From Mycobacterium sp. (GTDB taxonomy: Bacteria; Actinomycetota; Actinomycetes; Mycobacteriales; Mycobacteriaceae), in contig RXJD01000035.1 of NCBI GenBank assembly GCA_003987775.1, forward strand, positions 1 to 33,808: 33,808 nt of DNA, in the 5' to 3' direction. Below the pieces are notes generated by a model. The model was not told the DNA's origin. It worked only from the letters and a program-made list of their open reading frames with translations, and did no database searches. Positions 15,342 to 32,115 of this stretch are shown here, one piece after another. A program made the translations under genes and the position numbers. The stretch's first letter is position 1. Each line of letters begins with the position of its first letter.

Positions 15342-15611
15342 CTGCGGCTCCCAACACTCAACGAGACGATTCGATCGGCCAACTCTATGCACACGGAATG
15401 CAAATGTGAATAAGCCTCACACTGTCGTGTCGTGTCCATCGCGGGCCCCGAAATCGCGTTGATGCGTCTACCCGGTAAATGAGTCCAGCTTATTTTCGAG
15501 TTCGGTGGCCGCGGTCGGGCTAGAAAAGACGACGAAACACATGGCTGGTCGCAAGCCATCGCGGTAACTCGCGCGCGGGGATGAGTTGGCTGTCAAGGCA
15601 AGACCCAGTGA
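15342..15611. other. Upstream region of the PE_PGRS gene
   Basis: About 270 bp, less GC-rich than its surroundings, lying 5' of the PE_PGRS gene. It must hold that gene's promoter, but no promoter hexamers can be named with confidence. Confidence 0.3.
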
Positions 15612-18201: not shown

Positions 18202-19503
18202 TCAAGATCTTTCCCGCTGAACTGCAGGGGACTGCGCAGCGCCGGCTGGCCCGGTCGCGCAGTCTTGAGTTGCCCGGGGCTGGAGGTGCTGGTTGCGGTC
18301 CAGGACGCGCAGAGCCAAAGCTGCGAGTAGACCGATGATGAACAGCCCGGCCCATACCAGTTCGTCGGCTCCGGCCTGACGCGCTGCACCCATTGCCCAA
18401 CCGGTAGCCAGGTTGCCGGCGAGGATCCCCACTCCGACGATGGTGTTGTAGAAGCCGTAATGCGTAGCCACGAGCCGGCCTCCGGCCAGAGCCATGACGG
18501 TGTCCATTTCGAACGGGAAGACCGCGGCCGAGCCGACGGCCAGCATGGCGGCTGTCGCCAGCAGCGCGGCGATAGCCGCGACGATCCCAAGTCGAGACCC
18601 GTTGGGGACGGCTATCAGCGGCAAGAAGGAGGCCGCCAGGACACCCAACCCGACGGCCAGGCTGCGACCGGGACCCCACCGCGCGGCGAACCAGCGAGTG
18701 ATGCGCAGCTGTCCGGCGACCGCCACCAGGCCAGAAACGACGAAGATCGCCGCCACCAGTAGCGTTTGGTAGCGCTTGGTCAACAGCGCTGCCTGGAGTG
18801 GCAGGGCGAGGTAGACCTGGAAGGACAACACGTAGGAGCCGATCATCGCGGCGGCGAACAGCAGAAAGGACCGGTTTCCCAGGACGACTCGCCAGTCATC
18901 GAAAATCGATGTTTTCTCGGGCGTCGGATCAGCGCTGTGTTGCGGCAGCGCTAGCAACTGCGCCACGGTCAGTACCGCGAAGATCGCCGCGGCGCCTCCG
19001 GCGGTGACGCGGAAGTCGATGGCTACCAGCAGAACTCCGACCAACGGACCCAGCAGAATTCCAGCCTGGTAGAAGATGTTGAATACCGCGAATGCTTCCA
19101 CACGGCGCTCACGTGAATCGGCGGCGAGATATGCACGCACCGCGGGGTTGAACAACGCTCCGGCGAAGCCCGTGGCAGCCGAGGCGATCAATACGACCGG
19201 CAACGAATGCGCGAAGATCAGCAACGCGAAGCCGCCCGTTCGAAGCAAACAGCCAACCACGATCAACGGTTTGTAGCCGATCCGGTCTGCCAGCGTGCCG
19301 CCGACAATGAACATGCCCTGTTGGGAGAAGTTGCGGACACCCAAGACGAGCCCAACAGCCCACCCCGCCAGCCCGAGTGGGCCGGCGAGGTAGGCCGCCA
19401 GGTACGGCATCAACATGTAGAAACCGAGGTTGATGCCGAACTGGTTGATCATCAGCATCCGGCTGGGCCGGTCGAAGCTGCGGAATTGCGTCAGCAATTG
19501 CAT
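18202..19503 (-). CDS. Major facilitator superfamily transporter, copper-regulon type (Rv0849-like)
   Basis: A 433-residue MFS protein with about 12 hydrophobic segments. It contains the loop 2-3 signature GTLADRIGYKPL (G-x-x-x-D-R-x-G-x-(R/K)) and a second-half pseudo-repeat. The start [10 protein letters not shown] is chosen because its ATG overlaps the cysK2 stop (TAATG), showing tight coupling. The open frame runs on for another 100 codons upstream, but that is antisense to coding cysK2 frames. In M. tuberculosis the MFS gene Rv0849 follows cysK2 in the same RicR-controlled group; this looks like its orthologue. The substrate is unknown; the context suggests a metal chelate, a sulfur metabolite or another copper-stress compound. 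The C-terminal tail is polar and Gln/Pro-rich. Confidence 0.88.
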   Translation of the reverse strand: MQLLTQFRSFDRPSRMLMINQFGINLGFYMLMPYLAAYLAGPLGLAGWAVGLVLGVRNFSQQGMFIVGGTLADRIGYKPLIVVGCLLRTGGFALLIFAHSLPVVLIASAATGFAGALFNPAVRAYLAADSRERRVEAFAVFNIFYQAGILLGPLVGVLLVAIDFRVTAGGAAAIFAVLTVAQLLALPQHSADPTPEKTSIFDDWRVVLGNRSFLLFAAAMIGSYVLSFQVYLALPLQAALLTKRYQTLLVAAIFVVSGLVAVAGQLRITRWFAARWGPGRSLAVGLGVLAASFLPLIAVPNGSRLGIVAAIAALLATAAMLAVGSAAVFPFEMDTVMALAGGRLVATHYGFYNTIVGVGILAGNLATGWAMGAARQAGADELVWAGLFIIGLLAALALRVLDRNQHLQPRATQDCATGPAGAAQSPAVQRERS

Positions 19504-20672
19504 TACTGCATCGCTCCGGTGGGATCCACTACGGTGGCGCACCGGGTCCAGGACTGCACGACCTGGTCGGTCGGGTGGTCGATGACGGCCGGCTCTTCGG
19601 GCGGTAACTGGTCGAGCAGGCCGTGCTCGCGGCAGTAATTGTCGTTGTAGATGGTGTCGAAATAGCGTTGCGGTCCGTCGGGGAAAACCGCGGCGATGGT
19701 GGTCTCGGCGGGCATGGTCCGCGCGGCCCACCCGGCCACCAAACCGACGGCTCCCACACTCCAGCCGCCGCTGGCGTGGTGGGTGGCTGCCAGGGCACGC
19801 GCCGCCCACACCGCCTCGGCCGGTGCCACCCAGTGCACCTCGTCAAACGCCGCATAGTCGACATTGCGCGGGTAGATGCTCGACCCCAGACCCCGCATCA
19901 ACCGGGTGGCCGCGGGTTGACCGAAGATCGTCGAGCCGACGGTGTCCACACCGATCACCTTCAGATCCGGGTTCGCCTCGCGCAGCACCCGTGCCACTCC
20001 CGCCGAGTGCCCGCCGGTACCCACCGAGCACACCAACACATCGATGCGACCAAGCTGGTCGAGCAGCTCCAGGGCCAGCGGACGGTAGGCGTCCACGTTC
20101 TCGGGGTTGTTGTACTGGTTGGGGCACCACGCGTCGGGGTCAGCGGCCAGCAGCTGCGCAATACGGTCCTTGCGGGCCTGCTGCCATCCGCCGACCGGGT
20201 GGGGCTCGGTGACCACGTCAACCTCGGCGCCGTAGGCGCGCAGCATGTTCTGCACGATGGGCTCCATGCCCGGGTCGGTTACCACCGTGACCGGGTGCCG
20301 GTACACCATGCCGGCCAGCGCCAGCCCCAGGCCCAGGGATCCGCTGGTGGATTCCACGATGCGGGCTCCCGGACGCAGTTCACCGCGGGCACGGGCGCGT
20401 TCAACCATGTGCACTGCGGGCCGGTCCTTCATACTGCCGCCGGGATTGAAGCCTTCCAATTTGGCCCAGAAGCCGCGATCTGCGGCAGTCAGCGGTTCTG
20501 AGATCCGCAGTACCGGGGTGTTGCCCACCAGCCCGGCCGGCTGACGGTGGCTTCCCGGCACGGGCGGGCATTGTGCGGGGCTGAGAGGCCGGTCCACCAA
20601 CGTCAGCGACCGGGAATTGCAGGGCAGACGGGATTCCAGAGAGTTCGAGGAACGAGCAGAGTTGTTGTTCAT
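19503..20672 (-). CDS. cysK2: CysK2-type PLP-dependent S-sulfocysteine/cysteine synthase, copy 1
   Basis: A 389-residue fold-type II PLP enzyme. Visible motifs are [11 protein letters not shown], the PLP lysine in [11 protein letters not shown], a [10 protein letters not shown] substrate loop (TSGNTG in classical CysK) and the phosphate-binding loop GTGGHSAG. The closest match from memory is M. tuberculosis CysK2 (Rv0848), which uses O-phosphoserine and thiosulfate to make S-sulfocysteine. The ATG at 20672 is chosen because GAAAGCGACGATC just upstream is also found just before the start of copy 2. It lies 101 bp after lpqS and overlaps the MFS gene by one base, so it is read from the RicR-type promoter at 21.3 kb. 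A non-conserved Ser/Asn-rich extension of about 50 residues precedes the catalytic domain. Confidence 0.93.
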
Positions 20673-20773: not shown

Positions 20774-21298
20774 TCAGCGACGAGAAGAGCACAACCGCGT
20801 CAAGAGATCTTGACCGGTCAAAATGGCAGCGACGCCACGCGGCGGACCGCGACCACCCGATATCACATGCCGCCCGAACAACCCCGCGGCAGCTACCACT
20901 GCTATGAGCACGCTCAAAGCCGCCATGGTGGTAACGGGCGCGTTGGGCAGCACGGCGGTCATGAACGCCTCGTTATGGGCTACCGAGGGGCTTTCTAGGT
21001 GCGCGTGATCGCTGTTGATTGTGTATTCGCCACCGAGTGGACTTACTAGAACGTGGGAGCGGTGGGAGGGATGGGGGGTAGCAGGCCCATGTCGCACTTC
21101 GGCGTGTCCGAGAACAAGGATCCACACCGCGACGGCGGCAACAGCGGCAGCCAAGGCCGCGGTGAATTGCCACCACGGCCGCGGGCACGCCTTTGATCCG
21201 CTCACAGTGCTTACAGCGTAGCAATGGGATCGGTGCCGCGTCGACGACAGGCGGCCGTGCTGGGACATCGCGTCCGCCCACACCGTTTCGTACCCCAT
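20774..21298 (-). CDS. lpqS: LpqS-like His-rich membrane protein, copy 1
   Basis: A 174-residue protein. After a basic N-terminal segment comes a membrane helix (about 46-64, FTAALAAAVAAVAVWILVL), then a His-rich segment (GHAEVRHGPATPHPSHRSH) and the motif GGEYTINSDHAHL. A second helix (TMAALSVLIAVVAAAGLFG) follows, and the protein ends TGQDLLTRLCSSRR. The DLLTR-x-C-x-x-RR ending and G-x-E-(F/Y)-x-IN-x-DH motif match M. tuberculosis LpqS (Rv0847) from memory. No lipobox cysteine is seen, so it is probably a membrane protein with an external His-rich, likely Cu-binding, loop and a cytoplasmic tail. The ATG begins on the last base of the RicR-type operator. A later start (ATG at 21268) is possible. 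It heads the lpqS-cysK2-MFS-mmcO run. Confidence 0.85.
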   Translation of the reverse strand: MGYETVWADAMSQHGRLSSTRHRSHCYAVSTVSGSKACPRPWWQFTAALAAAVAAVAVWILVLGHAEVRHGPATPHPSHRSHVLVSPLGGEYTINSDHAHLESPSVAHNEAFMTAVLPNAPVTTMAALSVLIAVVAAAGLFGRHVISGGRGPPRGVAAILTGQDLLTRLCSSRR

Positions 21299-21335
21299 AC
21301 CCCCTGAGGGTACAGGCGAGTCGAGTGGGTGGCAA
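21298..21335 (-). promoter_or_regulatory. RicR-type copper operator and promoter of the lpqS-cysK2-MFS-mmcO operon
   Basis: On the minus strand TACCCTCAGGGGGTA (21312-21298) fits the mycobacterial RicR box TACCC-N5-GGGTA. Its first six bases TACCCT also fit a TANNNT -10 element, and TTGCCA (21335-21330) lies exactly 17 bp upstream as a -35. The last base of the box is the A of the ATG, so a transcript starting about 7 bases after the -10 would be leaderless. RicR leaves DNA when it binds Cu(I), so copper should induce the operon. Confidence 0.88.
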
Positions 21336-21403
21336 GGGGCGACAAGGTCACGAAAAGGCTGTCGAACATCGTCTGGCGCATCGACAGGCCCATGGTGTAT
21401 TAC

Positions 21404-21424
21404 TAATGATTATCATTATCATTA
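21404..21424 (+). promoter_or_regulatory. Zur/Fur-like operator
   Basis: An AT-rich near-palindrome starting TAATGATTATC and ending ATTATCATTA stands out in GC-rich DNA. It fits the mycobacterial Zur (FurB) consensus as I remember it (TNATGAAAATNATTTTCA with flanking TA) at about 17 of 21 positions, and also the general Fur-box pattern. It lies 37 bp before a small ORF coupled to a PPE-PPW gene. Related PPE genes near ESX-3 in M. tuberculosis are zinc-regulated by Zur. Which of Zur or another Fur-family protein binds cannot be told from sequence alone. Confidence 0.75.
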
Positions 21425-21460
21425 ACGTGCGGGGCGGTGCCCTCAGCGGTTAAAGGAGCG

Positions 21461-21643
21461 ATGCCGATGGTGGCGCTGCGGTGCCCGCTACAGTCAGTGG
21501 TCGCATTGGCAGCGGATGACCATGTCGTGACGATACGTACGGCGGTGTTCCGCACGGCGCAGCCGGCTAATGGGGGGAACCGGCCACCGTTGAGCTCTGC
21601 ATTGGCTTATCCGCCGGAGTTACATCGTGGCGGCGTACTGTGA
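21461..21643 (+). CDS. Small protein (60 aa) translationally coupled to a PPE gene
   Basis: The frame starts at an ATG three bases after AAAGGAG (21452-21458); a second in-frame ATG at 21467 has the better spacing. It ends in a GTGA overlap with the PPE gene. The Fur/Zur-like box 37 bp upstream would control it. The protein begins [23 protein letters not shown] and matches nothing I recognise; it has one cysteine, no membrane helix and a Pro/Arg-rich second half. Because the PPE gene itself has no clear Shine-Dalgarno, translation of this ORF may be needed for PPE synthesis. It could be a true small protein or only a translational leader. Confidence 0.55.
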
Positions 21644-23124
21644 CGGCCCCACTTTGGATAGCTGTGCCCCCTGAGGTGCATTCGGCGTTGATCAGCAGCG
21701 GCCCCGGGCCTGGGCCGATGATGGAAGCGGCTGCGGCATGGTCGGCGCTGAGCAGCGAGTACGCCGCGGCCGCTGGCGAGCTGACGGCGGTGCTCAGCGT
21801 GGTGCAGGCCGATGCCTGGGGAGGAAGCAGTGGCAACTCCTACGTGTCCGCGCATACGCCCTATCTGGCTTGGCTGATTCAAGCCAGCAACAACACTGCC
21901 GAAGCGGGCGCCAGACAAGAATCCGCCGCCGCGGCGTACTCCGCCGCCGTAGCGGCGATGCCGACTTTGACCGAGCTGGCCGCAAACCACGCGACTAACG
22001 CGGTGCTGGTCGCAACGAATTTCTTCGGCATCAACACCATTCCGATCGCTCTCAACGAGGCGGATTACGTGCGAATGTGGATCCTTGCCGCCACAACAAT
22101 GAGTACCTATCAGGCGTTCGCGGACGCCGCCGTGGCGTCGATCCCGACCACCACATCGGCCCCGCAAATTTACCAGCCCGACGGCAACGCCCGGTGCAGC
22201 GCCGGCACCAGGATTGATCCCTGGACCGGTGAACTCGAAGACATTCCATGCCCGACCGACCCCCAGTTCTACTCCAACTGGGGAACCGAGCTCAGCGAAC
22301 AAATACCCGATCTGATAAACACCCTGCTGACAAATCCGGCGCAGGTGCCCGGCGTCCTTGCTCTGATGGAAGCGGACTTCATGTTCCACGTGCAAGTGAT
22401 CGTTTCCTATTTGGTTCAATCTCCACAGTTTCTGGCGATCGCTCTGGGCGTCCCGACCGCCGGCCTCGGAGCGGTCAGCGGCATGGGTGCAGTCAGTGGC
22501 CTTGCCACGTTGGCTGCAATTCCGGCGGATGTCAGCGCCGCCGAACCGCTGTCCCCCCCGGCCCAGCCCCAAGCGGCGGCCCTCGCCCCCACCTCAACCG
22601 CGTCTGGCGCGGCGACTTCTGGTGCCTCGGCACCTGCGTCCCCGTCCACGTCGACGCCCGCGCCCGCAACTTCTGCGTCCGCCGCGCCACCACCGCCGGC
22701 CGGCGCACAGGGTGTGGCCTTCCCCTACGTGATAGGGGGTCCACGGTTCGGATCCGGTTCCACAATGAGCACCAGTGCCAGTGCAAGTACCAAGAATAAG
22801 GCGGCTGAAGCAGGTGGGGTTGCCTCCGCGGCGACCGAGCGCGAGCACAGGCGGGCGCGGCGTCGCCAGCGCGAAAAGGTGACCGGTTGCGGCGATGAGT
22901 ACATGAATATGAATATTGAGGTCACTGCGACCTGGGAGGAGCCGGTTGATGAGTTGGGGACATCGACGTCGGCCTCGATTCAGGGTGCTGGACGGGTCGG
23001 GTTTTCCGGCACCGCACCCACGGAGCAGGTCCCCGCGGCGGCGGGTTTGACCACGCTGAGCGGTCAGGAGTCTGGCCAGAGTCCGCGACTTCCGATGGTT
23101 CCGGGGACGTGGCACTCCCGGTAG
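21640..23124 (+). CDS. PPE family protein, PPE-PPW subgroup
   Basis: A 494-residue PPE protein. The N-terminal PPE domain (about 1-175) starts [23 protein letters not shown]; it contains the GWGG-like W-x-G turn (DAWGGSSG) and [23 protein letters not shown]. That last segment is close to the ESX-3-linked PPE3/PPE4/PPE20 group. A variable Ala/Pro/Ser-rich middle includes hydrophobic helices. The C-terminus has GFSGT and RLPMVPGTW, the GF-x-GT and P-x-x-P-x-x-W motifs that define PPE-PPW proteins. These members are linked to nutrient and metal transport across the outer membrane. The GTG start overlaps the upstream small ORF. With the Zur-like box upstream, a role in zinc acquisition is a reasonable inference. 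Confidence 0.9.
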
Positions 23125-23373
23125 TCCCTGGTAGTCGTCGGACCAGCCTCTGCTGTCCTGGACTGAAGTATTCGCCGACGATCCTGAACTCGACCTCGAC
23201 AAAGCTCTGTCACGTGCTGACTTGCCAAAAATCAGGGGCCGTCGGCGCTGGCAGGGAGCCCGACCCCGGCGCGGGAATGCGAGGTGCAGTCGGCCGGGAC
23301 CCGTGTTGGTGAGCTCAAAAACTCGTCTGTCCAAATGTGGGTTAACATGTCGTGATCCGGCCGCTGTATCGTG

Positions 23374-23388
23374 TACCCTCGGTGGGTA
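23374..23388 (+). promoter_or_regulatory. RicR-type operator of lpqS copy 2
   Basis: TACCCTCGGTGGGTA matches TACCC-N5-GGGTA exactly. As in the other two lpqS genes its first six bases fit a TANNNT -10 element and its last A is the first base of the ATG. The -35 region 17 bp upstream is poor compared with copies 1 and 3. Confidence 0.85.
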
Positions 23389-23837
23389 TGAGAAGCATCC
23401 GATTGTGGTCGGATGATCGACGTGTAGAAACGAGCAGAGCGTTCCGATTGCGCTTTGCCGTAGTCGTCGCGGCTGCAGTCGCGGCATTGGCCATCATCGG
23501 TCACTGCGTGCCGGTGCGCGCCGCTGCTTCGCCATCTTCGCCGCCGCAACAACTGTCAGTGGCCTCGCTTCCTCTCGCGGTCCATGCCAGCGCTGATCAG
23601 CCGCAGCTTGCGCAGGAGCGGCCAATCTGTAAAGCCTCGAAGGTATTCGCGATTGATGCGATACCCGCCGCGGTGATGACCGCGCTGGTCGTCCTCGGCC
23701 TGGGCTTGGCGGCGCTGGCGGGTATGGGCTGGCTGACACAGCTGGTGGCACCGGCCGGACGGAGCCCTCCGCACCCACGCGTTGCCATCTTGTCCGGTCG
23801 AGATCTTCTGACTCGGTTCTGCTTAGCTCGTCGCTGA
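23388..23837 (+). CDS. LpqS-like membrane protein, copy 2 (His-poor)
   Basis: A 149-residue paralogue. It has a basic start (MRSIRLWSDDRRVETSRAFRLR), a first helix (FAVVVAAAVAALAIIGHC), an external segment, a second helix (AVMTALVVLGLGLAALAGMGWL) and the family ending SGRDLLTRFCLARR. The His-rich segment and the IN-x-DH motif of copies 1 and 3 are missing; only the GHC after helix 1 and one isolated His remain. It therefore keeps the topology and C-terminal signature but probably not the same metal-binding ability. The ATG at 23388 overlaps the RicR box; upstream in-frame codons belong to the promoter. No cysK2 gene follows; a PE/PPE pair lies downstream instead. Confidence 0.8.
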   Translation: MRSIRLWSDDRRVETSRAFRLRFAVVVAAAVAALAIIGHCVPVRAAASPSSPPQQLSVASLPLAVHASADQPQLAQERPICKASKVFAIDAIPAAVMTALVVLGLGLAALAGMGWLTQLVAPAGRSPPHPRVAILSGRDLLTRFCLARR

Positions 23838-24241
23838 CTGGTCAGCGTCAAGCCCTGGTGCTGTGCGGCACACGGCTGGTGACGTCTGTTCCTGTCGATT
23901 TTCGCGCGGTAGCCGCGCCCTGATCTAAAGCCGACTGATGTGATGCATTCACTATTTGATGAATTATACAAATACTCTGCTGCGCCCGGGTTGCTGAGTT
24001 GCTCGCGGCCGAGGGAAGCACGGCACCGTGAGCCTGCCCGCCGAGGCCGATTCGTTCGTGCGTTAGCCGAGGCTCGCGGACGACGGTCGCTGTCCACAGG
24101 GATGTTGCAGGTCCCCGATCGCCGGGAAACGATTCCCGGCGGCACCGTTGATCTTTCCAAGGCGCCTACATGGTCCCTCCGCCGCCATGGCACGGGAACA
24201 CATTTCGGTAGCGGAGCCGCATTCTTTAAAGGAGAGCAAAC
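23838..24241 (+). other. Intergenic region, possible relic of a cysK2 5' end
   Basis: About 400 bp between lpqS copy 2 and the PE gene. The first bases (CTGGTCAGCGTCA) match those after lpqS copy 3. Near 23928-23960 the string AAAGC.GACTGATG...CACTATTTG resembles the leader and start of cysK2 copy 2 (AAAGCGACGATCAATG...CTCTTTG). No catalytic CysK2 sequence follows. An AT-rich patch at 23936-23985 could be a promoter of the PE/PPE pair. Confidence 0.35.
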
Positions 24242-24541
24242 ATGTCGTTTGTGACAACGCATCCGGAAGCGCTGGCGTCGGCGGCCGGCGATCTGCTGAC
24301 GATCGGCGCGGCGATGGAAGCCGGAACGGCGGCGGTCGCGGTCCCGACGGCCGCAGTGGTGCCGGCCGCCGCTGACGAAGTGTCGGCGTTGACCGCGGCC
24401 CAGTTCGCCGCGCACGCGCAGCTGTACCAAGCAGTGGCTGCCCAGGCCACAGCAATTCACGACCAGTTCGTTGCCGCCTTGGCGACTAGCGCTGGGTCCT
24501 ATGCCGTCACCGAGGCCGCCAATGCGGCCGCGACCGGCTGA
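24242..24541 (+). CDS. PE family protein
   Basis: A 99-residue protein that is essentially only a PE domain: MSFVTTHPEALASAAGDLLTIGAAMEAG, two long Ala-rich helices with the turn [24 protein letters not shown], and the YAVTEAANAAA end, which contains the Y-x-x-x-(D/E) export signal. AAAGGAG lies before the ATG. It is followed 28 bp later by a PPE gene, the standard PE/PPE arrangement. The pair should form a helical heterodimer secreted by a type VII (ESX-5-type) system. The PE protein probably serves as the partner carrying the export signal. Confidence 0.93.
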   Translation: MSFVTTHPEALASAAGDLLTIGAAMEAGTAAVAVPTAAVVPAAADEVSALTAAQFAAHAQLYQAVAAQATAIHDQFVAALATSAGSYAVTEAANAAATG

Positions 24542-24569
24542 CGCGCGTCATAGCTGAAGGGGTATGCGA

Positions 24570-25721
24570 ATGGATTTCGGGGCACTTCCACCGGAGATCA
24601 ATTCGGCCAGGATGTATTTGGGTCCCGGTTCCGGACCGATGCTGGCCGCCGCGACCGGCTGGGATGAGCTGGCCGTTGAAATGAGTTTAGCCGCAACGTC
24701 TTACGCCGCGGTAATCGCCCGGCTGACGGCCTTGTCCTGGTACGGCCCGGCGGCGACCTGGATGGCGTCGGCAGCTGCGCCGTATGTGATGTGGATGACC
24801 ACGACCGCAACCGCAGCGGAGCAGGCGGCCGACCAGGCCCGCGCCGCAGCCGCCGCATTTGAGGCGGCGTTCGCGCAGACCGTGCCACCACCGGTGATCG
24901 TGGCCAATCGCAGCTTGTTGATGAGCCTGATCGTGACGAACATCTTCGGGCAGAACACGCCGGCGATCGCGGCCACCGAGGCCCAGTACGCGCAGATGTG
25001 GGCCCAAGATGCGATGGCCATGTACGGATACGCCGGTTCGTCGGCGGCCGCGTCGACGTTGACGCCTTTCGCGCCGCCTCAGCAAGTCGCCAATCCGAGC
25101 GGGTTGGCTGCGCAGGGCGCCGCTGTCGCCCAGGCCGCGGGCGCTTCGGTGGCAACCGACACCCAGGCCGTCCTCACGCAGCTGACGTCGTCCGTACCCA
25201 CCGCGTTGCAGCAACTTGCTTCGCCCCTGTCGTCGGGTTCGGTGTCCTCGATGCTGAGTGCGATAAACCCGGAGCTATCAACGATAAGTTCAACCGCGTG
25301 GATCGCCAGCGCCGGCCTGTCGACCGGGGAGAAGCTCAAGGGTCTGCTGCCGGCGGCCACCAGCGCACTCGCACCAGCCGTTGCCGAAGGGTTGGCCACC
25401 GGGCCACTCGGATCCGGGTTGGCCGGTCTGGCAGGCTTCGGCGGTGCCGGCACGGTATCGGCGGGTATGGGGCAAGCCGGATTGGTCGGGTCGTTGTCGG
25501 CACCGCAGAGTTGGACAGCTTCTGTGCCGGCCAAGGCGGCTGCTGCGCTGACTGGCACCAACCTCGGCGCCGCTCCGGCCGCCAACTCCGGTGTGCCGAG
25601 CAGCATGTTAGGTGGACTCCCGTTGGCGGCGGCAGGAGAGCGCGGCGCAGCCGGGATTGTCCCCGATCCCCGGTTCCTGGAGCGCCCACCAATGGTGCCT
25701 CGGTGGTCAAACCTGGTTTAG
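24570..25721 (+). CDS. PPE family protein, PPE-SVP subgroup
   Basis: A 383-residue protein. The PPE domain (about 1-175) starts [24 protein letters not shown] and contains the SWYGPAAT W-x-G turn and [25 protein letters not shown] variable middle follows. The [12 protein letters not shown] segment at about 308 fits the G-x-x-SVP-x-x-W motif that defines the SVP subgroup (SAP replaces SVP). The end ([12 protein letters not shown]) is usual. The ATG at 24570 has GAAGGGG seven bases upstream; an ATG two codons earlier is also in frame but would give an atypical MRMDFG start. It is co-transcribed with the PE gene. SVP-type PPE proteins are mostly ESX-5 substrates located at the cell surface. Confidence 0.93.
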
Positions 25722-25851
25722 GGAGAGGAGGCCACCACGAAGGGCCGCCAGAAACCACGGTTGCGTAGGCCTGGGGCGCCGTTCATCGGCGGCGCTTCAC
25801 GCAGACCTGGGTCCAACGCCCGATGAATCGGCGAAACGATGTCGCGCCCGG

Positions 25852-25889
25852 TTGCTGGAACAACATCCGACGCCTACCCTCTAGGGGTA
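25852..25889 (+). promoter_or_regulatory. RicR-type operator and promoter of lpqS copy 3 and cysK2 copy 2
   Basis: TACCCTCTAGGGGTA (25875-25889) matches the RicR box. TACCCT serves as a -10 element and TTGCTG at 25852-25857 lies exactly 17 bp upstream as a -35, the same layout as lpqS copy 1. The final A of the box starts the ATG, which predicts a leaderless, copper-induced transcript. Confidence 0.88.
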
Positions 25890-26323
25890 TGAGGTCTGTG
25901 CGAGAACGGACGGCTCCGTCTCCACGCACCTCGCTGCTGACACGGCGCTCGATGACCGCGGTCGCCACAGCCGCGTTCTTGCTTCTGCTGCTGGGGCACT
26001 CGGCACTGCTGCATTCGGAGACCGGCCACCCCCACCACTCCCATGCGTTGTTATCCAGCGTGGGCGCGGAATTCGCGATCAATGTCGATCACCCCAATCT
26101 TGTCAACGGAGCTTTGACCGCTTGTCATGACGTCTCGGCGTCCGCGGTGTTGCCGCGAACCCCAACCATTTTGATGGAAACCGGCGTGGCCGCAGCAATG
26201 GTCGCGATTGTCGCCGGAGTGTCCGGTGACGCCACGACGTCGGGGCGGAGCCCACCGAATGCAGCACCGCCCGCCCTCACCGGTCGAGATCTCTTGACGC
26301 GGCTCTGCCTGATTCGTCGCTGA
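25889..26323 (+). CDS. LpqS-like His-rich membrane protein, copy 3
   Basis: A 144-residue paralogue close to copy 1. It has a basic start (MRSVRERTAPSPRTS), a helix (MTAVATAAFLLLLLGHSALL), a His-rich segment (HSETGHPHHSH), the motif GAEFAINVDHPNL, a helical segment (METGVAAAMVAIVAGVSG) and the ending TGRDLLTRLCLIRR. The clustered histidines outside the membrane suggest copper binding; no lipobox is present. The start is fixed by the RicR box whose last base is the A of the ATG. A cysK2 gene follows after 102 bp, repeating the lpqS-cysK2 order of the first operon, so the pair was probably duplicated as a unit. Confidence 0.88.
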   Translation: MRSVRERTAPSPRTSLLTRRSMTAVATAAFLLLLLGHSALLHSETGHPHHSHALLSSVGAEFAINVDHPNLVNGALTACHDVSASAVLPRTPTILMETGVAAAMVAIVAGVSGDATTSGRSPPNAAPPALTGRDLLTRLCLIRR

Positions 26324-26425
26324 CCGATCAGCGTCAGGTCGTGGTGTCATGCGCACGGCGGCCGGTGCTCGCTGACCGGTGTTCGATGTCGCAATTCTGC
26401 GGCGCATTTGCGAAAGCGACGATCA

Positions 26426-27619
26426 ATGAAGAACTCTTTGTCCCTAGCACACTCTGAGCGCTGCAGTACGCTCACTGAAGCAGCCGAACTGCACTGCAAT
26501 TGTGACGCGGCCGATCCGGGCATCGGAGGCCATCTTAATTCTGCGGCTGCCTCGGCCTGTTCAGCTGGTAGGTATCGCGAAGCCGCTAGTTTAGTGGGCA
26601 ATACCCCGGTGCTGTGGATCTCGGACGCACTTGCGGCCGAGGGCCGCGGGTTCTGGGCCAAGCTTGAGGGCACTAATCCCGGCGGAATGAAAGATCGGCC
26701 CGCCTTGCACATGGTTCAATGCGCTCGGGCTCGCGGCGAACTACAACCAAACGCACAGATTGTCGAATCCACCAGTGGCACGCTCGGATTGGGTCTGGCA
26801 TTGGCCGGGCAGGTATACGGCCATCCCGTGACTTTGGTTACTGATCCCGGCATGGAGCCCATCGTGCAACAGATGCTGGCCGCGTACGGGGTGCGCATCG
26901 AGATCGTCGCCGAGCCGCATCCGCGCGGGGGATGGCAGCAGACCCGCAAAGCCCGCGTGGCGCAACTGCTGGCCGCAGATCCGCGTGCGTGGAATCCCGA
27001 TCAATACAACAATCCTGACAACGTAGGCAGCTACGAGTCGCTGGCGCTTGAACTACTGAATCAGGTTGGAAGCGTTGATGTCCTGGTGTGTTCGGTGGGC
27101 ACCGGAGGCCACTCGGCCGGTGTGACGCGTGTGCTGCGCGAAGCTAACCCCGACCTGAAGTTGATCGGGGTTGACACCATCGGCTCGACGATCTTCGGGC
27201 AGCCGGCCGCCGCCACACGGTTGATGCGCGGTTTAGGGTCAAGCATCTATCCCCGCAACGTCGACTATGCCGCGTTCGCTGAGGCGCATTGGGTATCCCC
27301 GGCCGAAGCCGTGTGGGCATGTCGGACGCTGGCAAGTACGTACTTCATCAGCGGAGGGTGGAGTGTCGGTGCGGTGGCGTTGGTCGCCGGTTGGGCTGCT
27401 CGCGCCTACGGTCCTAGTACGACGATAGTCGCCATCTTTCCCGATGGTCCCTTGCGCTACTTCGACACCATCTATAGCGACGATTTTTGCCGCGGCCACG
27501 ATTTGCTCCTCGCAGCCCGGCCGCGTGAGCCCGCAGTCATCGCTGACCCATCCGATCAGGTTGTGCAGTCGTGGACGCGGTGCACGACCGTACGCGATCC
27601 AACCCTGTCAAGGCAGTGA
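26426..27619 (+). CDS. CysK2-type PLP-dependent S-sulfocysteine/cysteine synthase, copy 2
   Basis: A 397-residue paralogue of copy 1. It shows [12 protein letters not shown], the PLP lysine in [11 protein letters not shown] (one residue shorter than [11 protein letters not shown] of copy 1), [10 protein letters not shown], and GTGGHSAG. Long identical runs occur in the centre ([27 protein letters not shown]). The N-terminal extension of about 55 residues is unlike that of copy 1 and contains four cysteines and two histidines before the catalytic part (ERC, HCNC, SAC), possibly a metal-binding addition. The ATG at 26426 is preceded by GAAAGCGACGATC, conserved before copy 1. It follows lpqS copy 3 behind a RicR-type promoter and so should be copper-induced. 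Confidence 0.9.
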
Positions 27620-27836
27620 GCATTTTCCGGTGTGCACGTCTTCACCCGGGGGGGTCGGTGTCAGCGGAAACCTCATCAAGGTCGCAGCTACGTTGCGGCA
27701 GTTCCGGTGTCCCCCAAGTCCGCAGGGACAAACGGTATGGCGCAATGCTGGCCGTGGACACCGCAGCATCCTCAATCTGCTATGCGACCTTGGACGTTGA
27801 TCAACGAGCCGCAACGACCACGGAAGGGGAGGCTCG

Positions 27837-28565
27837 ATGCCGCCTTTGGAATGCCCGCAGAGACGGGACCCGCGCGCACTCCTGCTCCTCTACAGCGGAC
27901 TGCTGGCCGCAGTCGCCGGTTGGGTCAACTCGGTGGCCCTCCTGGTGTGGGTATATCCGGTGGGCAACCTCACGGCGCTGACCACCAAAATCGGCCAGCA
28001 CACTACGAATCCACTACTGCATCCGGGTGGCATGATCGCGGCGATCGTCACCGGATTTCTGATCGGCGTTCTGGGAGCCGGTGCCCTGCTTGCTCCCGCG
28101 CAAAGCCCTACTGGCCCGCGCCACGCCGCGGTGCTCCTCGGAGAAGCAGCTCTGCTGTTGGCTGCCGCCGGTATCGAACACCCGTTGATCAGAGCGCCGC
28201 TGGCCGCCGCGGCGTGCGGATTGCAGAATGGAATGACTTCCAGTTTCCCGGGGATGCCCATCCGCACCACTCACTTCACCGGCACGATCACCGACCTCGG
28301 CCTGCTGGTGGCGCGTAGTCACCGCCACGGAATTGACGGCTGGAAAGCGGCGCTGCTGACTTCGACGGTCCTGCTATTCATCGGTGGCGCCGCCGGCGGC
28401 GTGATCCTCGGCGGCCGGATCGGCGACCACGCACTGATCCCGGCGGCCATCACGTGCGGGGGTCTCGCTATCGCACACGTGTTGCGTTTTCGCTGGCATC
28501 GCTCGCTCGCTGTCGACACGGCACCCGCGCTCGAACCCGGCCCTCACGGGGACGCACCGTCATAA
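27837..28565 (+). CDS. DUF1275 (YoaK-like) integral membrane protein
   Basis: A 242-residue protein with six or so hydrophobic segments. It contains the family features AGWVNSVALLV near the start, GNLTALTTKIG, the CGLQNGMTS segment and the TTHFTGTITDLG motif. DUF1275 proteins are small membrane proteins of unknown substrate found in many bacteria. GGGGAGG stands about 5 bases before the ATG. It is 217 bp after cysK2 copy 2 on the same strand and could be read from the same copper-controlled promoter, but it could equally have its own. The C-terminal tail (ALEPGPHGDAPS) is hydrophilic. Confidence 0.85.
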   Translation: MPPLECPQRRDPRALLLLYSGLLAAVAGWVNSVALLVWVYPVGNLTALTTKIGQHTTNPLLHPGGMIAAIVTGFLIGVLGAGALLAPAQSPTGPRHAAVLLGEAALLLAAAGIEHPLIRAPLAAAACGLQNGMTSSFPGMPIRTTHFTGTITDLGLLVARSHRHGIDGWKAALLTSTVLLFIGGAAGGVILGGRIGDHALIPAAITCGGLAIAHVLRFRWHRSLAVDTAPALEPGPHGDAPS

Positions 28566-28857
28566 GCTGACGTCATCAACGCGCTTGCCCGCGGGTTGAA
28601 TGCAGTGACTCCTGGTGACTACCAAAGTGCTGCAGGCATTCTCAGCGACCTCAACGTTGCAGATCCAACCGGCCCCGGTGCAGCGGCCGCCGACCCCGCA
28701 GGACTGACGCGGATAGCGACAGGTCAAGTCAAGCACGCCTTGCCGCTCAACCCCGTCGTGGAAGCTATCGACGACCCTGCTGACACACCCGGACGCAACC
28801 GTCAATCTGACGCCGCCGTCACCGCACCATCTCCCCGGGATTGCGTTTGTGAAGCGA
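28566..28857. other. Intergenic region, no supported gene
   Basis: About 290 bp. A plus-strand frame (28596-28991) is open but has no domain, signal or start context, and it overlaps the minus-strand secreted-protein gene. Confidence 0.4.
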
Positions 28858-29175
28858 TCAGCGATTTACGCGGCGGCTGCTTCGCTTGTGGGCGAAAGCT
28901 GTGCGCGTTTGGCGGCACGCCGTTGCCCGCCCGGCGAACCGGCGATCGGTTTGTGGCTGCGGTGCACGCAGGCCGACAAGGCCTTCCTTGATTCCTTCGG
29001 TGACCTCGGGAATATCAAAGCGATGCCCCGAATCCTGGGAAGGGCACGAGCAACTGAGTCCGCTGTAGGGGTCTCCCGGATCAGCCGCAACCGCCGAGGT
29101 GGTACCGCCGATTACCACGCCCGTCGCGGCCACAACGGCCATCAAGTGCTGCAGGTGCCTGCCATGGAGCGTCAT
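28858..29175 (-). CDS. Small secreted protein of unknown function
   Basis: A 105-residue protein. Signal peptide HLMAVVAATGVVIGGTTSAVAADP (cleavage probably after AVA) is followed by GDPYSGLSCSCPSQDSG with a CSC pair, then an acidic IPEVTEGIKEGLVGL helix and a basic C-terminus. Short mycobacterial exported proteins with an 'ADPGDPY-x-x-LSCSC' start occur, but no function is known to me. GGTAGGA precedes the ATG at 29175; an internal ATG (about codon 12, MAVVAAT) would give a more typical signal peptide. The last 30 residues, rich in Arg, may be out-of-frame sequence after a lesion. It follows the DUF4189 gene on the same strand by 228 bp. Confidence 0.6.
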   Translation of the reverse strand: MTLHGRHLQHLMAVVAATGVVIGGTTSAVAADPGDPYSGLSCSCPSQDSGHRFDIPEVTEGIKEGLVGLRAPQPQTDRRFAGRATACRQTRTAFAHKRSSRRVNR

Positions 29176-29403
29176 CGCGTCCTACCGGCTCTCGACACTG
29201 AGACCAGCGAACCCGAATCCGACGTCAGCCCAGCCATCCGCGGCAGAGCTCGGAAATATCCCCACCAGGTGCAGCACCGTCGGACAACACATAACTCTGT
29301 ATACGATAGCCCGGTACGGTATGGCGATCAACCGCCTGGCGCCTGCGCTCGCATGGCCGGATGCTCTACCCCGCGGAACGTTGGCGCCCAGTCCTCAGCG
29401 CGC

Positions 29404-29838
29404 TCAGTTGCATACCCAGCTGACGACCGTCCCACCGCCAAGCCTGTTCAAAGCGTCGGTTTCGGCCGCGGCACGCGAAAAACCCGTTCCACCGCGGTAG
29501 TTCACGCCGTCGGAAGCCACCGCGCCACACAGATTGAAGCTGATCACGACGCGGCAGTCCTTATCGTTGCAGCGATCGACTGCGACCTGTTCGGCTTGTG
29601 CCTTGGCGGGGTAACCCTGCGCTGTACCCCAAGCGCCGCTAGGGGCATAGGCGATCGCGCCGTAGCGCATCACGTGCGGCACGGGCATCTCCGGCCGCAT
29701 GCCCATCTCAGACATCGCAGCTTTGTCCAGATTGGCGCTCACTTGCGGAACCAGCGGAAGCGCTATGGCCATCAGCCCGGCTGTGGCACCGACGCTTGCG
29801 ACTGCTACTGCGATTTTATGCCGTCTCTTAGTTGTCAT
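29404..29838 (-). CDS. Secreted DUF4189 protein (Rv1269c-like)
   Basis: A 144-residue protein with a signal peptide (MTTKRRHKIAVAVASVGATAGLMAIALPLVPQVSA). The DUF4189 domain reads YGAIAYAPSGAWGTAQGYPAKAQAEQVAVDRC, then CRVVISFNLCGAVASD and ends LGGGTVVSWVCN. Four cysteines are placed as in the family and probably form two disulfides. The alternation closely follows M. tuberculosis Rv1269c as I recall it (YGAIAYSGNGSWG...CGAVAAND...WACN). A segment rich in Met between signal and domain (KAAMSEMGMRPEMPVPHVM) is not part of that family and could bind Cu(I), which would suit the setting. AGAGGA lies 9 bases before the ATG. Confidence 0.88.
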   Translation of the reverse strand: MTTKRRHKIAVAVASVGATAGLMAIALPLVPQVSANLDKAAMSEMGMRPEMPVPHVMRYGAIAYAPSGAWGTAQGYPAKAQAEQVAVDRCNDKDCRVVISFNLCGAVASDGVNYRGGTGFSRAAAETDALNRLGGGTVVSWVCN

Positions 29839-29952
29839 TGTCTTGATTCCTCTCTTGTATATTCCCGTGTGTGATGATTTGGCCCTGTTGTGCTGTGGGC
29901 GAGAGACTTTCGACCGAGGCCAAACACGCTCTGCTCCAGACTCTTAGGCGGA

Positions 29953-30288
29953 TTAGGGATGGTGCGGTACTGAAGGCGGTGTCGGCACCGTGGTCTGCCG
30001 TGGCTCGTTTGACTCCTTTCCGGGTTCCATACCTTTGCCTGCCCCCATCATTGGGCAGCTGCTGCGTTCGCCGCCGCCTGATGGTGGGTGCCCGGCGCTC
30101 GGGCCATTCGTGGCGCGGGACAAGAAGAAACCCGCAAAAAACAGCAGGGCTACGACGAAAACGACACCGGCGGTAGTGCCCACGATCACCCGCCCCTGGT
30201 CCAGGGGGCTCGGCGGATTGGATTGGTGCGCGTGGCTGGCCTGTTCTGCTGCCGTGCGAGGCTCCTGCGACCCTGATGTCTGCGTCAT
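29953..30288 (-). CDS. Small His/Met/Cys-containing single-pass membrane protein, candidate new copper-regulon member
   Basis: A 111-residue protein. An N-terminal polar part contains HAH, one strong membrane helix follows (about 35-56, VIVGTTAGVVFVVALLFFAGFFL), then a Gly/Pro/Ser-rich tail with CPMMGAGKGM and a final PHHP. The Cys-Pro-Met-Met cluster and His residues are typical of copper-binding tails, but I recognise no family. The ATG lies about 20 bp downstream of a RicR-type palindrome (30310-30324), so copper control is likely. No clear Shine-Dalgarno is seen. An alternative frame whose ATG overlaps the palindrome, as in the lpqS genes, exists (29828-30310) but has no protein-like composition. 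Confidence 0.7.
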   Translation of the reverse strand: MTQTSGSQEPRTAAEQASHAHQSNPPSPLDQGRVIVGTTAGVVFVVALLFFAGFFLSRATNGPSAGHPPSGGGERSSCPMMGAGKGMEPGKESNEPRQTTVPTPPSVPHHP

Positions 30289-30305
30289 GTAGTAGATTTT
30301 TCGGC

Positions 30306-30334
30306 AGCATACCCCATGGGGGTAGGGACTAAAG
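30306..30334 (-). promoter_or_regulatory. RicR-type operator upstream of the small membrane protein gene
   Basis: TACCCCATGGGGGTA (30310-30324) fits TACCC-N5-GGGTA on either strand. On the minus strand a TATGCT (30311-30306) can serve as -10, with TTTAGT 16 bp upstream as a weak -35. The operator would then fill the spacer, and the transcript would start about ten bases before the ATG at 30288. Confidence 0.75.
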
Positions 30335-30658
30335 TCACCAAAAGACTAGTTTTGTTCGCCGGGGGCTGTGAATCGGCCATCTCGATCAGCCCTTGGGTCC
30401 GGCACCGCTGGCCAATAAGTGACAGCATGAGTTCTTTCGCTGTGCCCAACCGCGCAGACGCAGGGCGTTATCGAATTGCCTGTGCTGCAGCATGTTTGGC
30501 CGTTGCATCCAAGCCCGGCCCAGCGCTTTCCCGGGATGTGCGGTGCTGGGTGTGCGTGATGATGGTCTTACCGGCGTGGTAGGACGTCGCATTATGCGCC
30601 TGTGAGCAGGGCTGTGCCGGCGATGCGAATATCTACGGCTGGTGACGTCGAATTGTGT
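30325..30658. other. Intergenic region, no supported gene
   Basis: About 330 bp between the RicR-type box and the end of the DUF732 gene. Short frames occur on both strands, but none has a domain, a start signal or plausible composition. Confidence 0.4.
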
Positions 30659-31717
30659 TCACGGTGCGAGCCTTATCAGGCCGGGCGGACCGGGGGGCTC
30701 CGGTGACGGCTTCGGCGAACCGCTGCCACCGCCAGAGGCACCGCCCGCTCCACCGCCACTGCCGCCGCCGTGACCGCCTCCCCCTCCAGCGCCGCCGCCA
30801 CCGCCACCACCGCCACCCTGCTGGCCAGCGTCAGGTGGCTCAACTACTTGTGGTGGGGGCGGGGGCTCAAGAGGAATGGGTGTCGGTTGCTGAAGGGGAG
30901 GGGGCGGCTCCTGCGGCGGCGGTGGCGGCTCTTGCGGCGGTGGTGGCGGCGCCTGCGGTGGGGGCGGGGAGTGCCTTGGGGGCGGCGGCGCCTCGACGTG
31001 CGGGAGCGGCGTCACGATATGCGCTGGGGGGGGAGTCGGAATCGGAATCTGTGGCGGGTTCGGTAGGTGGGGATCACCCGCTGGTGGCGCACCGATGGCC
31101 CAGGCCGGCACTATGTCGTGTACCGGCTTCGTATAGGGGTGATACGCGCAAGCTTTTCCGGAGATGTCAGGCGTCAAGCCGACCGCGCGGTCACCCGGGG
31201 GTTCCGGCGGCGCCGCCTGTTCGACGTACGGCGTTGCGCGCCGCTCCAGTGAATCCGTGCCCGAAGTGACGGTGTGGTGCCCATAGCCGCCGAGGCGATA
31301 CATCGGTTGATCCGGTCCCGGCGCCGCGCGGCGCATTACGAAAGCTATTGCGCCACGGTCGTAGGGGCAGTAGACCTCCACTGCTGCAGCGATGAATCGG
31401 GCCATGGTGGTGGTGACTCGGGACGGGGGAAAGCGGTGCAATGTCGGGTCCATGTTGTATGCATCACTGCGTAGCGCCTCGACGATTTCGTCCACTGGCG
31501 TACCGCCGTCAAGTTTGAGACAAACCTTATGAGCTGCGTTGATGACCCGCGGCGGATTCGCAACGGCGGGGATTTCCTGTTTTTCGAGCAGAGCAAGAAA
31601 TTGGTCATCCTGGTCTGGGTCGGCCGCTGCAGCGCCGCCGCGCAGAATGGCGGTGCCGGTGATGACCGCGAGGGCGGTGACGAGCGCGCCGACGTGGGTG
31701 GTGATTCTGGTGGACAT
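30659..31717 (-). CDS. Secreted DUF732 protein with proline-rich and glycine-rich C-terminal regions
   Basis: A 352-residue protein. A signal peptide (MSTRITTHVGALVTALAVITGTAILRGGAAAA) precedes a DUF732 domain (about 33-110: DDQFLALLEKQEIPAV, VINAAHKVCLKLDGGTP, FIAAAVEVYCPYDRG) with its usual two cysteines. Then comes a mid region with a CAYHPYTKPVHDIVPAW segment, a Pro-rich stretch (PPPPPQEPPPPPQEPPPP) of about 80 residues and a Gly/Ser-rich end. Such tails suggest spanning or attachment to the cell wall. The ATG at 31717 is chosen for the signal peptide; the frame stays open to 31924 with no protein-like composition. A RicR-type promoter 370 bp upstream faces this gene. DUF732 function is unknown. 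Confidence 0.82.
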   Translation of the reverse strand: MSTRITTHVGALVTALAVITGTAILRGGAAAADPDQDDQFLALLEKQEIPAVANPPRVINAAHKVCLKLDGGTPVDEIVEALRSDAYNMDPTLHRFPPSRVTTTMARFIAAAVEVYCPYDRGAIAFVMRRAAPGPDQPMYRLGGYGHHTVTSGTDSLERRATPYVEQAAPPEPPGDRAVGLTPDISGKACAYHPYTKPVHDIVPAWAIGAPPAGDPHLPNPPQIPIPTPPPAHIVTPLPHVEAPPPPRHSPPPPQAPPPPPQEPPPPPQEPPPPLQQPTPIPLEPPPPPQVVEPPDAGQQGGGGGGGGGAGGGGGHGGGSGGGAGGASGGGSGSPKPSPEPPGPPGLIRLAP

Positions 31718-32086
31718 GCCCTGTGGTCCTTCTGCCGTGTAGGCGTTCGACTGGTGGGTCGTGTGCCTACTTTTTATTGCCTGCGTTGGTTTTTCAGCCG
31801 CTGCGACATCGTTGCGGCGCTTATTCGTTAGCGATTCGCCCAAGGGCAGGGGCGACGATGATTCGCGTCTAAAGAACACTTCCGGCCGGCAGATTGCACC
31901 TGGAGTTCTGGTCGCCTCGGGCATACCACCGTGGCCGTTGGCCGTTTTCGTCGCGGCTGGTCGCCCCTATCAGTCCGGCAAGGCCAAACAGACGTTTAGC
32001 TACGCGGCGGCATGTTGTTGTGCTGAGTTGAACGAGAAGCAGCTGTTAGGGTCTGCGGCAGAATCACACTCTCTTCATAGCCCTTT
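31718..32086 (-). other. Long 5' region between RicR-type promoter and DUF732 gene
   Basis: About 370 bp. If transcription starts near 32080 it would be an unusually long leader for the DUF732 gene. It contains a four-codon frame (ATGAAGAGAGTGTGA) directly after the predicted start and the upstream extension of the DUF732 frame. No known riboswitch was recognised. A separate nearer promoter cannot be excluded. Confidence 0.35.
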
Positions 32087-32115
32087 AATGTACCCCTATG
32101 GGGTACCTTGGTCAA
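32087..32115 (-). promoter_or_regulatory. RicR-type operator within a minus-strand promoter
   Basis: The palindrome TACCCCTATGGGGTA (32091-32105) is part of a perfect 7-bp-arm inverted repeat. On the minus strand TTGACC (32115-32110) and TACATT (32092-32087) are separated by exactly 17 bp, a near-consensus promoter with the operator in the spacer. This points towards the DUF732 gene. No comparable promoter is seen for the plus strand. Confidence 0.75.

What the first reader, a model, noticed from the sequence alone, without database searches (positions are those of the whole stretch)
20774..32115. Cluster of five RicR-type copper operators in about 11 kb
Exact TACCC-N5-GGGTA palindromes occur at 21298-21312, 23374-23388, 25875-25889, 30310-30324 and 32091-32105. 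Each stands at the promoter of a gene or run of genes: lpqS-cysK2-MFS-mmcO, lpqS copy 2, lpqS copy 3-cysK2 copy 2, a small Met/His membrane protein and a DUF732 secreted protein. In M. tuberculosis the RicR regulon is a handful of scattered sites. Here it seems to have grown in place by duplication and recruitment into a copper-resistance island.
Basis: partly seen in the sequence, partly recalled or inferred. Interest (0 to 1): 0.85.

Follow-up and report, generated by a model that had tools for sequence, protein, structure and literature searches.

The report
Plasmid copper island with double-switch promoter
A plasmid found in two mycobacterial species carries a copper-resistance region whose genes sit behind copper-responsive DNA switches, and some of these switches are joined to what looks like a low-oxygen switch, which would let the cell combine two host-like stress signals at one promoter.

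Summary
All five TACCC-N5-GGGTA sites are real, and the RicR reading holds. The genome has 23 exact sites (reversed-pattern control 7), one before a chromosomal ricR and one before mymT, both passing NCBI's models. All three LpqS pass NCBI's model. The "grown in place" story fails: the window matches the 305,730-bp plasmid pMpg-1 of Mycobacterium paragordonae, which holds 15 of the 23 sites (control 0) and three RicR paralogues. The LpqS and CysK2 copies are old paralogues with separate counterparts in M. gordonae. Two genomes 9% apart at a chromosomal locus share this region almost base for base.

The new point is site 4 (30310). It abuts GTGACTTTAGTCCC, one mismatch from the DosR-box core, with no spacer. 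Such joints occur at 8 of 23 operators here, in 16 of 396 Mycobacterium genomes (reversed-box control 0 of 396), and at 19 of 21 operator-bearing promoters among 45 loci of the CPMMG gene family. Most likely these promoters are derepressed by copper (RicR) and activated by hypoxia/NO (DosR). Binding and expression are untested; the other four window sites lack the box.

The parts
16603..18105 (-). mmcO-like multicopper oxidase, last gene of the lpqS1 unit
   Evidence: Pfam Cu-oxidase domains; start from the plasmid annotation
18202..19503 (-). MFS transporter (Rv0849-like by position; name recalled)
   Evidence: Pfam MFS_1; annotation
19503..20561 (-). cysK2 copy 1
   Evidence: Pfam PALP; groups with copies of G119 and G090
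20774..21298 (-). lpqS copy 1 (longest ORF; start uncertain)
   Evidence: NCBIfam NF052429 LpqS, 94.2 bits vs cut-off 35
21298..21312 (-). RicR-type operator 1 (TACCC-N5-GGGTA), promoter of lpqS1-cysK2-MFS-mmcO
   Evidence: exact match; flanks
23374..23388 (+). RicR-type operator 2, promoter of lpqS2
   Evidence: exact match
23388..23837 (+). lpqS copy 2
   Evidence: NF052429, 72.1 bits; 82.6% identical counterpart in G119
25875..25889 (+). RicR-type operator 3, promoter of lpqS3-cysK2-YoaK
   Evidence: exact match
25952..26323 (+). lpqS copy 3 (annotated start)
   Evidence: NF052429, 107.3 bits for the ORF from 25889; start
26594..27619 (+). cysK2 copy 2
   Evidence: Pfam PALP; 92.5% identical to a G119 copy, 75.6% to copy 1
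27837..28565 (+). YoaK family membrane protein, likely same unit
   Evidence: annotation on NZ_CP025547.1
29404..29838 (-). DUF4189 secreted protein, second gene behind operator 4
   Evidence: Pfam DUF4189
29953..30288 (-). small membrane protein with CPMMG motif (CPMMG family, my name), first gene behind operator 4
   Evidence: no Pfam family, only a sub-threshold NCBIfam hit; nine-member alignment with invariant CPMMG
30310..30324 (-). RicR-type operator 4
   Evidence: exact match
30325..30338 (-). DosR-box-like element GTGACTTTAGTCCC, abutting operator 4 on the promoter's upstream side
   Evidence: 1 mismatch to GGGACTNNAGTCCC; composite pattern
30659..31717 (-). DUF732 secreted protein with Pro/Gly-rich tail
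   Evidence: Pfam DUF732; start
32087..32115 (-). operator 5 (32091-32105) inside a TTGACC-17 bp-TACATT promoter reading towards DUF732
   Evidence: exact match; promoter hexamers

Best explanation
This is a copper-resistance region on a large ESX-P5-type plasmid (pMpg-1 of M. paragordonae or a near-identical one), controlled by RicR. Inferred from M. tuberculosis RicR: with little copper, RicR sits on TACCC-N5-GGGTA. In 17 of 19 oriented promoters the operator's last TA begins TAT, so RicR probably covers the -10 region and blocks RNA polymerase. Cu(I) removes RicR and switches on LpqS x3, CysK2 x2, MFS exporter, multicopper oxidase, the CPMMG membrane protein, DUF4189 and DUF732 proteins, and elsewhere on the plasmid CopZ-CopA, a DUF326 copper protein and RicR copies. 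A subset, site 4 among them, has a second layer: a DosR-box-like inverted repeat joined to the operator with no spacer and lying over the -35 region. I infer that DosR (hypoxia, NO) activates there once copper has removed RicR, so these promoters would need both signals or respond most to both. Shown: sites, genes, plasmid location, RicR and DosR genes, the fixed joint and its conservation. Inferred: binding, direction of control, signal logic.
For: Sites and enrichment. RicR: chromosomal copy 191.9 and plasmid C6 copy 184 bits against 175; C3 copy 174.5 and C49 copy 149.4. Sites before ricR, mymT and an ArsP_1 permease; ricR, mymT, lpqS, mmcO and the permease Rv2963 are RicR targets in M. tuberculosis (PMC10961391 passages). 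Plasmid. DosR: C28:30094-30744 matches M. tuberculosis DevR 3c3w, E 1.7e-113; consensus TTSGGGACTWWAGTCCCSAA in PMC2275270 passages; Dev boxes overlap the -35 element in analysed promoters (PMC3029386 passages). Joint: over 46 operator sides in this genome, boxes with <=3 mismatches number 8 at spacing 0 against 1 in 2576 other positions. Genus: 33 matches in 16 of 396 genomes, 8 of them from this genome and 6 from the same plasmid in G227; 29 of 33 have <=3 core mismatches. Spacings 1-20 together give 27, of which 4 have <=3. Reversed box: 0 of 396. The 19 matches in 14 other genomes lean to the DosR core at positions the pattern left free. Named genomes: 19 of 21 operator-bearing CPMMG promoters have it; box 1.22 bits per column against 0.26 in the flank beyond it.
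Against: No expression or binding data. Four of the five window sites have no DosR-like box (best 5-7 mismatches), so the second layer concerns one promoter here. GGGACTNNAGTCCC at <=1 mismatch is no commoner in the genome than its reversed control (14 vs 14), so a lone box is weak evidence. Composite promoters do not have significantly poorer -35 hexamers than the others (P 0.32). Only 6 of 19 oriented promoters have a full TANNNT at the presumed -10. The composite pattern was drawn from this genome's eight cases, and the CPMMG promoters are homologous. 24 of 45 CPMMG-like loci have no operator nearby. Some boxes depart at 3-4 of 12 positions, so another NarL/LuxR-type regulator could bind. 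Two of the three plasmid RicR copies fall below NCBI's RicR cut-off. That TACCC-N5-GGGTA is RicR's operator is recalled; the primary papers could not be read.
Confidence: 0.72

Rival explanations
1. Ordinary RicR island: the operators work by RicR alone, and the abutting GTGACTTTAGTCCC is an extended RicR contact or a remnant of shared ancestry, not a DosR site.
For: 15 of 23 operators lack it at spacing 0; one of those has a box 33 nt away. The composite promoters of the CPMMG family are homologous to each other. Lone boxes are not enriched.
Against: It is an inverted repeat close to the published DosR consensus, also at positions left free in the search. It occurs before different gene classes: CPMMG proteins, a DUF4189 gene, a carbonic-anhydrase/YHS protein, a DUF326 four-helix copper protein and a PPE gene. 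It is conserved while the flank beyond it is not.
Confidence: 0.22
2. The abutting box is bound by another NarL/LuxR-type response regulator, perhaps responding to copper or envelope stress, not by DosR.
For: Several boxes deviate from the core by three positions, e.g. GGGTCTAAAGACCA and GGGCCAATGGTCCC, and 4 of the 33 genus matches by four.
Against: Some are perfect DosR cores (GGGACTTTAGTCCC, GGGACTTAAGTCCC). GTGACTTAAGTCCC lies 10.6 kb from dosR in this genome.
Confidence: 0.15
3. The cluster grew in place by recent tandem duplication and recruitment.
For: Three LpqS and two CysK2-type genes within 11 kb.
Against: LpqS copies are 29-39% identical to copy 1, while the same array stands in G119 at 77-83%. 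CysK2 copies group with different outside copies (support 95/86 and 100/100). pMAH135 also has three LpqS-like stretches near PE/PPE, CysK2, MFS and DUF732 genes.
Confidence: 0.05

Closest known systems
RicR regulon of M. tuberculosis (ricR, mymT, lpqS-cysK2-Rv0849, mmcO, Rv2963, socAB)
   Same: RicR, palindromic operator, LpqS, CysK2-type, MFS, multicopper oxidase, MymT and a permease
   Different: 15 plasmid-borne sites, three plasmid RicR-type copies, LpqS tripled, CPMMG/DUF4189/DUF732 as further candidates, mmcO in the same direction as lpqS1 (opposite in M. tuberculosis by its gene names, recalled), and the DosR-like box at some operators
Plasmids pMAH135 (M. avium; ESX-P5 according to PMC6616192) and pFLAC0070_1 (M. 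chimaera)
   Same: each has nine exact sites (control 0), LpqS-like stretches, PE/PPE, CysK2-MFS, and DUF732 with an operator upstream
   Different: fewer sites; nearest CysK2 81% identical to copy 1; a heavy-metal (ArsI/CadI) gene nearby
DosR (DevR) regulon promoters
   Same: box close to TTSGGGACTWWAGTCCCSAA over the -35 region
   Different: here the box abuts a RicR operator; no such composite appeared in the listings and passages I saw
Plasmid-encoded copper resistance of M. scrofulaceum (Erardi 1987, seen only as a reference in PMC11877719)
   Same: copper resistance on a mycobacterial plasmid
   Different: its genes were not compared here

Membership tests
RicR regulon | RicR repressor encoded in the genome | tested here: met
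   chromosomal 191.9 and plasmid C6 184 bits vs cut-off 175; two more paralogues at 174.5 and 149.4, below it
RicR regulon | TACCC-N5-GGGTA operator at the promoter | tested here: met
   five exact sites; that this is RicR's operator is recalled, but it stands before this genome's ricR and mymT
RicR regulon | known target gene types | tested here: met
   LpqS x3, CysK2-type, MFS, multicopper oxidase
RicR regulon | copper induction and RicR binding | not testable with these tools
   needs RNA and protein work
DosR regulon (operator 4 unit only) | DosR in the genome | tested here: met
   3c3w DevR E 1.7e-113; DosS-like gene next to it, name recalled
DosR regulon (operator 4 unit only) | box close to TTSGGGACTWWAGTCCCSAA upstream | tested here: met
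   11 of 12 core positions
DosR regulon (operator 4 unit only) | box commoner than chance in the genome at large | tested here: not met
   14 vs 14 reversed control at <=1 mismatch; only the joined form is enriched
DosR regulon (operator 4 unit only) | hypoxia/NO induction dependent on DosR | not testable with these tools
   needs expression work
DosR regulon (the other four window operators) | DosR-like box upstream | tested here: not met
   best matches within 70 nt have 5-7 mismatches

The most novel reading that the evidence does not exclude
Slow-growing mycobacteria carry a composite promoter, a DosR box joined without spacer to a RicR operator, that integrates hypoxia/NO and copper. It controls an otherwise unnamed family of CPMMG membrane proteins, DUF4189 proteins, a carbonic-anhydrase/YHS protein and a copper-storage-type gene, and lies on plasmids as well as chromosomes.
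Probability: 0.55. Interest if true: 0.78.

Novelty: new variant of a known kind. Interest (0 to 1): 0.6.

Why it matters
Macrophages are reported to bring copper to the mycobacterial phagosome, and copper is reported to be more toxic under hypoxia (PMC4801387 passages). How mycobacteria join these signals is open: loss of csoR induces the DosR regulon by a mechanism the authors call unresolved (same passages). A promoter with both boxes in one fixed layout would be a direct and testable link. The plasmid result indicates that a large RicR-controlled copper island has moved between mycobacterial species.

Tried and rejected
Rejected: recent in-place duplication. Rejected: uniqueness of the density; one of the 198 genomes, G119 with 29, has more sites than this one. 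Not supported: composite promoters having weaker -35 hexamers than the rest (Mann-Whitney P 0.32, 8 vs 11 promoters). Lone DosR boxes are not enriched. Contamination as the reason for the shared plasmid is unlikely: the window differs from pMpg-1 by 5 mismatches in its largest aligned block (23,320 bases) and lacks two IS elements (IS3, IS256) present there. A second layout, box plus 12-nt spacer with TTGACA, appears in ten genomes, but nine are one identical sequence with 4 core mismatches, so it is weak support and was not used. The C6:2671 site has a 2-mismatch box 33 nt upstream, left out of the spacing-0 count. The gene at C6:3236-3529, which I first took for a SHOCT protein, matches no family above threshold; the Cys-rich peptide at C6:2543-2695 matches none. 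Sites C94, C108 and C5:255485 look like chance or cannot be assigned, judged only by reading. Paper searches showed no work on a joint RicR-DosR promoter, but I saw titles, abstract starts and passages only, and the lists were cut (12 of 2,400; 10 of 137, the latter unrelated).
Full report
What was checked. The five palindromes are exact and at the stated places; at one mismatch the window holds no others, and 0 of 100 shuffles reach five. In the whole genome (7.29 Mb, 114 contigs) there are 23 exact sites against 7 for the pattern read backwards. Among 198 Mycobacterium genomes drawn evenly, only one (29 sites) has more than this genome.

Where it is. The window is the whole of contig C33. 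Window 16000-32300 matches the 305,730-bp plasmid of M. paragordonae 49061, NZ_CP025547.1, over its full length at 100.0%. PMC6616192 names the plasmid pMpg-1 and gives it an ESX-P5 locus; the word copper does not occur in its main text (passages). On that record there are 15 exact sites and 0 control matches, and their sequences are those of 15 of the genome's 23 sites. The four sites of contig C49 lie beside the window's end, with IS110 and ISNCY elements between. The window differs from the plasmid by 5 mismatches in its largest aligned block of 23,320 bases; five smaller blocks are 100% identical, and two IS elements of pMpg-1 are absent from the window. The chromosomal ricR locus (6 kb) is 91% identical between this genome and G227, whose plasmid contig carries the joints at pMpg-1's coordinates, while 15.7 kb of the window are 100% identical. 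So the same plasmid sits in two species. That G227 is M. paragordonae is inferred from those coordinates.

What is regulated. In the window: lpqS1-cysK2-MFS-mmcO (operator 1), lpqS2 (2), lpqS3-cysK2-YoaK (3), CPMMG protein-DUF4189 (4), DUF732 (5). That these are single units is inferred from order and strand. Elsewhere on the plasmid: RicR-type regulators, an HMA protein with a copper-type P-ATPase, a DUF326 four-helix copper protein, a carbonic-anhydrase/YHS protein and a Cys-rich 50-residue peptide of no family. On the chromosome: ricR, MymT (95.5 vs cut-off 80 bits), an ArsP_1 permease and two CPMMG paralogues. The four RicR-type copies score 191.9, 184, 174.5 and 149.4 bits against 175, so two of four pass; they are 62-79% identical to each other. 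PMC10470581 says that M. tuberculosis RicR blocks five loci at low copper and leaves when copper binds (passages).

History of the cluster. LpqS copies 2 and 3 are 29% and 39% identical to copy 1. One contig of G119 (its length, 14,439, is that of a contig of M. gordonae DSM 44160) holds counterparts of all three at 77, 83 and 83% in the same order. CysK2 copy 1 groups with a G119 copy (95/86) and copy 2 with another (100/100); the two window copies are 75.6% identical (26 of 28 segments, two short ones dropped). pMAH135 and pFLAC0070_1 each carry nine exact sites (control 0); a third plasmid, NZ_CP015275.1, carries none. On the first two, LpqS-like stretches, PE/PPE, CysK2-MFS and DUF732 lie together. 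So this is an older, mobile island and not a recent local expansion.

The joint. On the promoter strand operator 4 reads GTGACTTTAGTCCC|TACCCCCATGGGGTA. The published DosR consensus is TTSGGGACTWWAGTCCCSAA (PMC2275270 passages), and the proximal Dev box overlaps the -35 element in the promoters analysed (PMC3029386 passages). Over all 23 operators, both sides, spacings 0-56, boxes with <=3 mismatches occur 8 times in 46 at spacing 0 and once in 2576 elsewhere. Six of the eight are on the plasmid, two on the chromosome. A degenerate pattern drawn from these eight gives 33 matches in 16 of 396 genomes: 8 here, 6 in G227 (the same plasmid) and 19 in 14 others. 29 of the 33 have <=3 core mismatches. 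The reversed box beside the same operator gives 0 of 396. The box at spacings 1-20 gives 27 matches in 26 genomes, 4 of them with <=3 mismatches; ten share a 12-nt spacer, nine of these being one sequence. In the 19 outside matches the free positions lean to the DosR core: position 6 T 12 of 19, position 10 G 14 of 19, position 11 T 14 of 19, position 2 G or T 19 of 19, with T (not the consensus G) in 11. A search of named genomes with the CPMMG alignment gave 45 loci; 21 have an operator (<=1 mismatch) near the start, and 19 of the 21 have the box (<=3 mismatches) at spacing 0, in M. gordonae, szulgai, gastri, persicum, innocens, simiae, angelicum, nebraskense and others. These overlap the genomes. 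Over 19 of the 21 (two near-duplicates dropped) the box carries 1.22 bits per column, the operator arms 1.93, the flank beyond the box 0.26, the downstream flank 0.58. The genome has a DosR (3c3w, E 1.7e-113) with three DosR-like boxes (<=1 mismatch) within 12.5 kb.

Results against. A lone DosR-type box is not enriched (14 vs 14). Composite promoters do not have significantly poorer -35 hexamers (P 0.32). 17 of 19 oriented promoters have TAT at the presumed -10, but only 6 a full TANNNT. Four of the five window operators have no such box, so for most of the cluster the plain RicR reading is enough. 24 of 45 CPMMG-like loci have no operator near them.

Mechanism. RicR on the operator would cover the core promoter. 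At operator 5 a TTGACC, 17 bp, TACATT promoter is intact, which suits simple derepression. At operator 4 the -35 place is taken by the DosR-like box, which suits a promoter opened by copper and driven by DosR. These steps are inferred.

Verdict. The island is a rich member of a known kind. The DosR-RicR joint is the part that would surprise a specialist.

Noticed in passing
window 21404-21424: TAATGATTATCATTATCATTA, a Zur-box-like sequence (consensus recalled), between lpqS1 and the divergent PPE gene at 21640; GAAAACGATTGTCA lies behind the C6:1970 composite site.
   Followed up: no
window 1-33808 vs NZ_CP025547.1: Near-identical plasmid region in two species whose chromosomal ricR locus differs by 9%; two IS insertions distinguish the copies.
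   Followed up: partly
G224 and nine other genomes: A second layout: DosR-like box (2 core mismatches in G224, 4 in the rest), 12-nt spacer holding TTGACA, then the RicR operator.
   Followed up: partly
G000:C6:2671 (L018): Cys-rich 50-residue peptide ORF of no known family with a RicR operator and a GTGACTTAAGTTCC box 33 nt upstream.
   Followed up: partly
window 11151-15392 minus: Long PE-PGRS-type protein with a non-repeat C-terminal part that looks like a phosphoesterase (recalled, not tested).
   Followed up: no
NZ_AP012556.1 119599-119613 (pMAH135): RicR-type operator 131 bp upstream of DUF732 on the M. avium plasmid, as in the window.
   Followed up: partly
G000:C5:255485 (L021): Exact operator 95 nt before an ORF that looks like a phage capsid protein (recalled); probably chance.
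   Followed up: no
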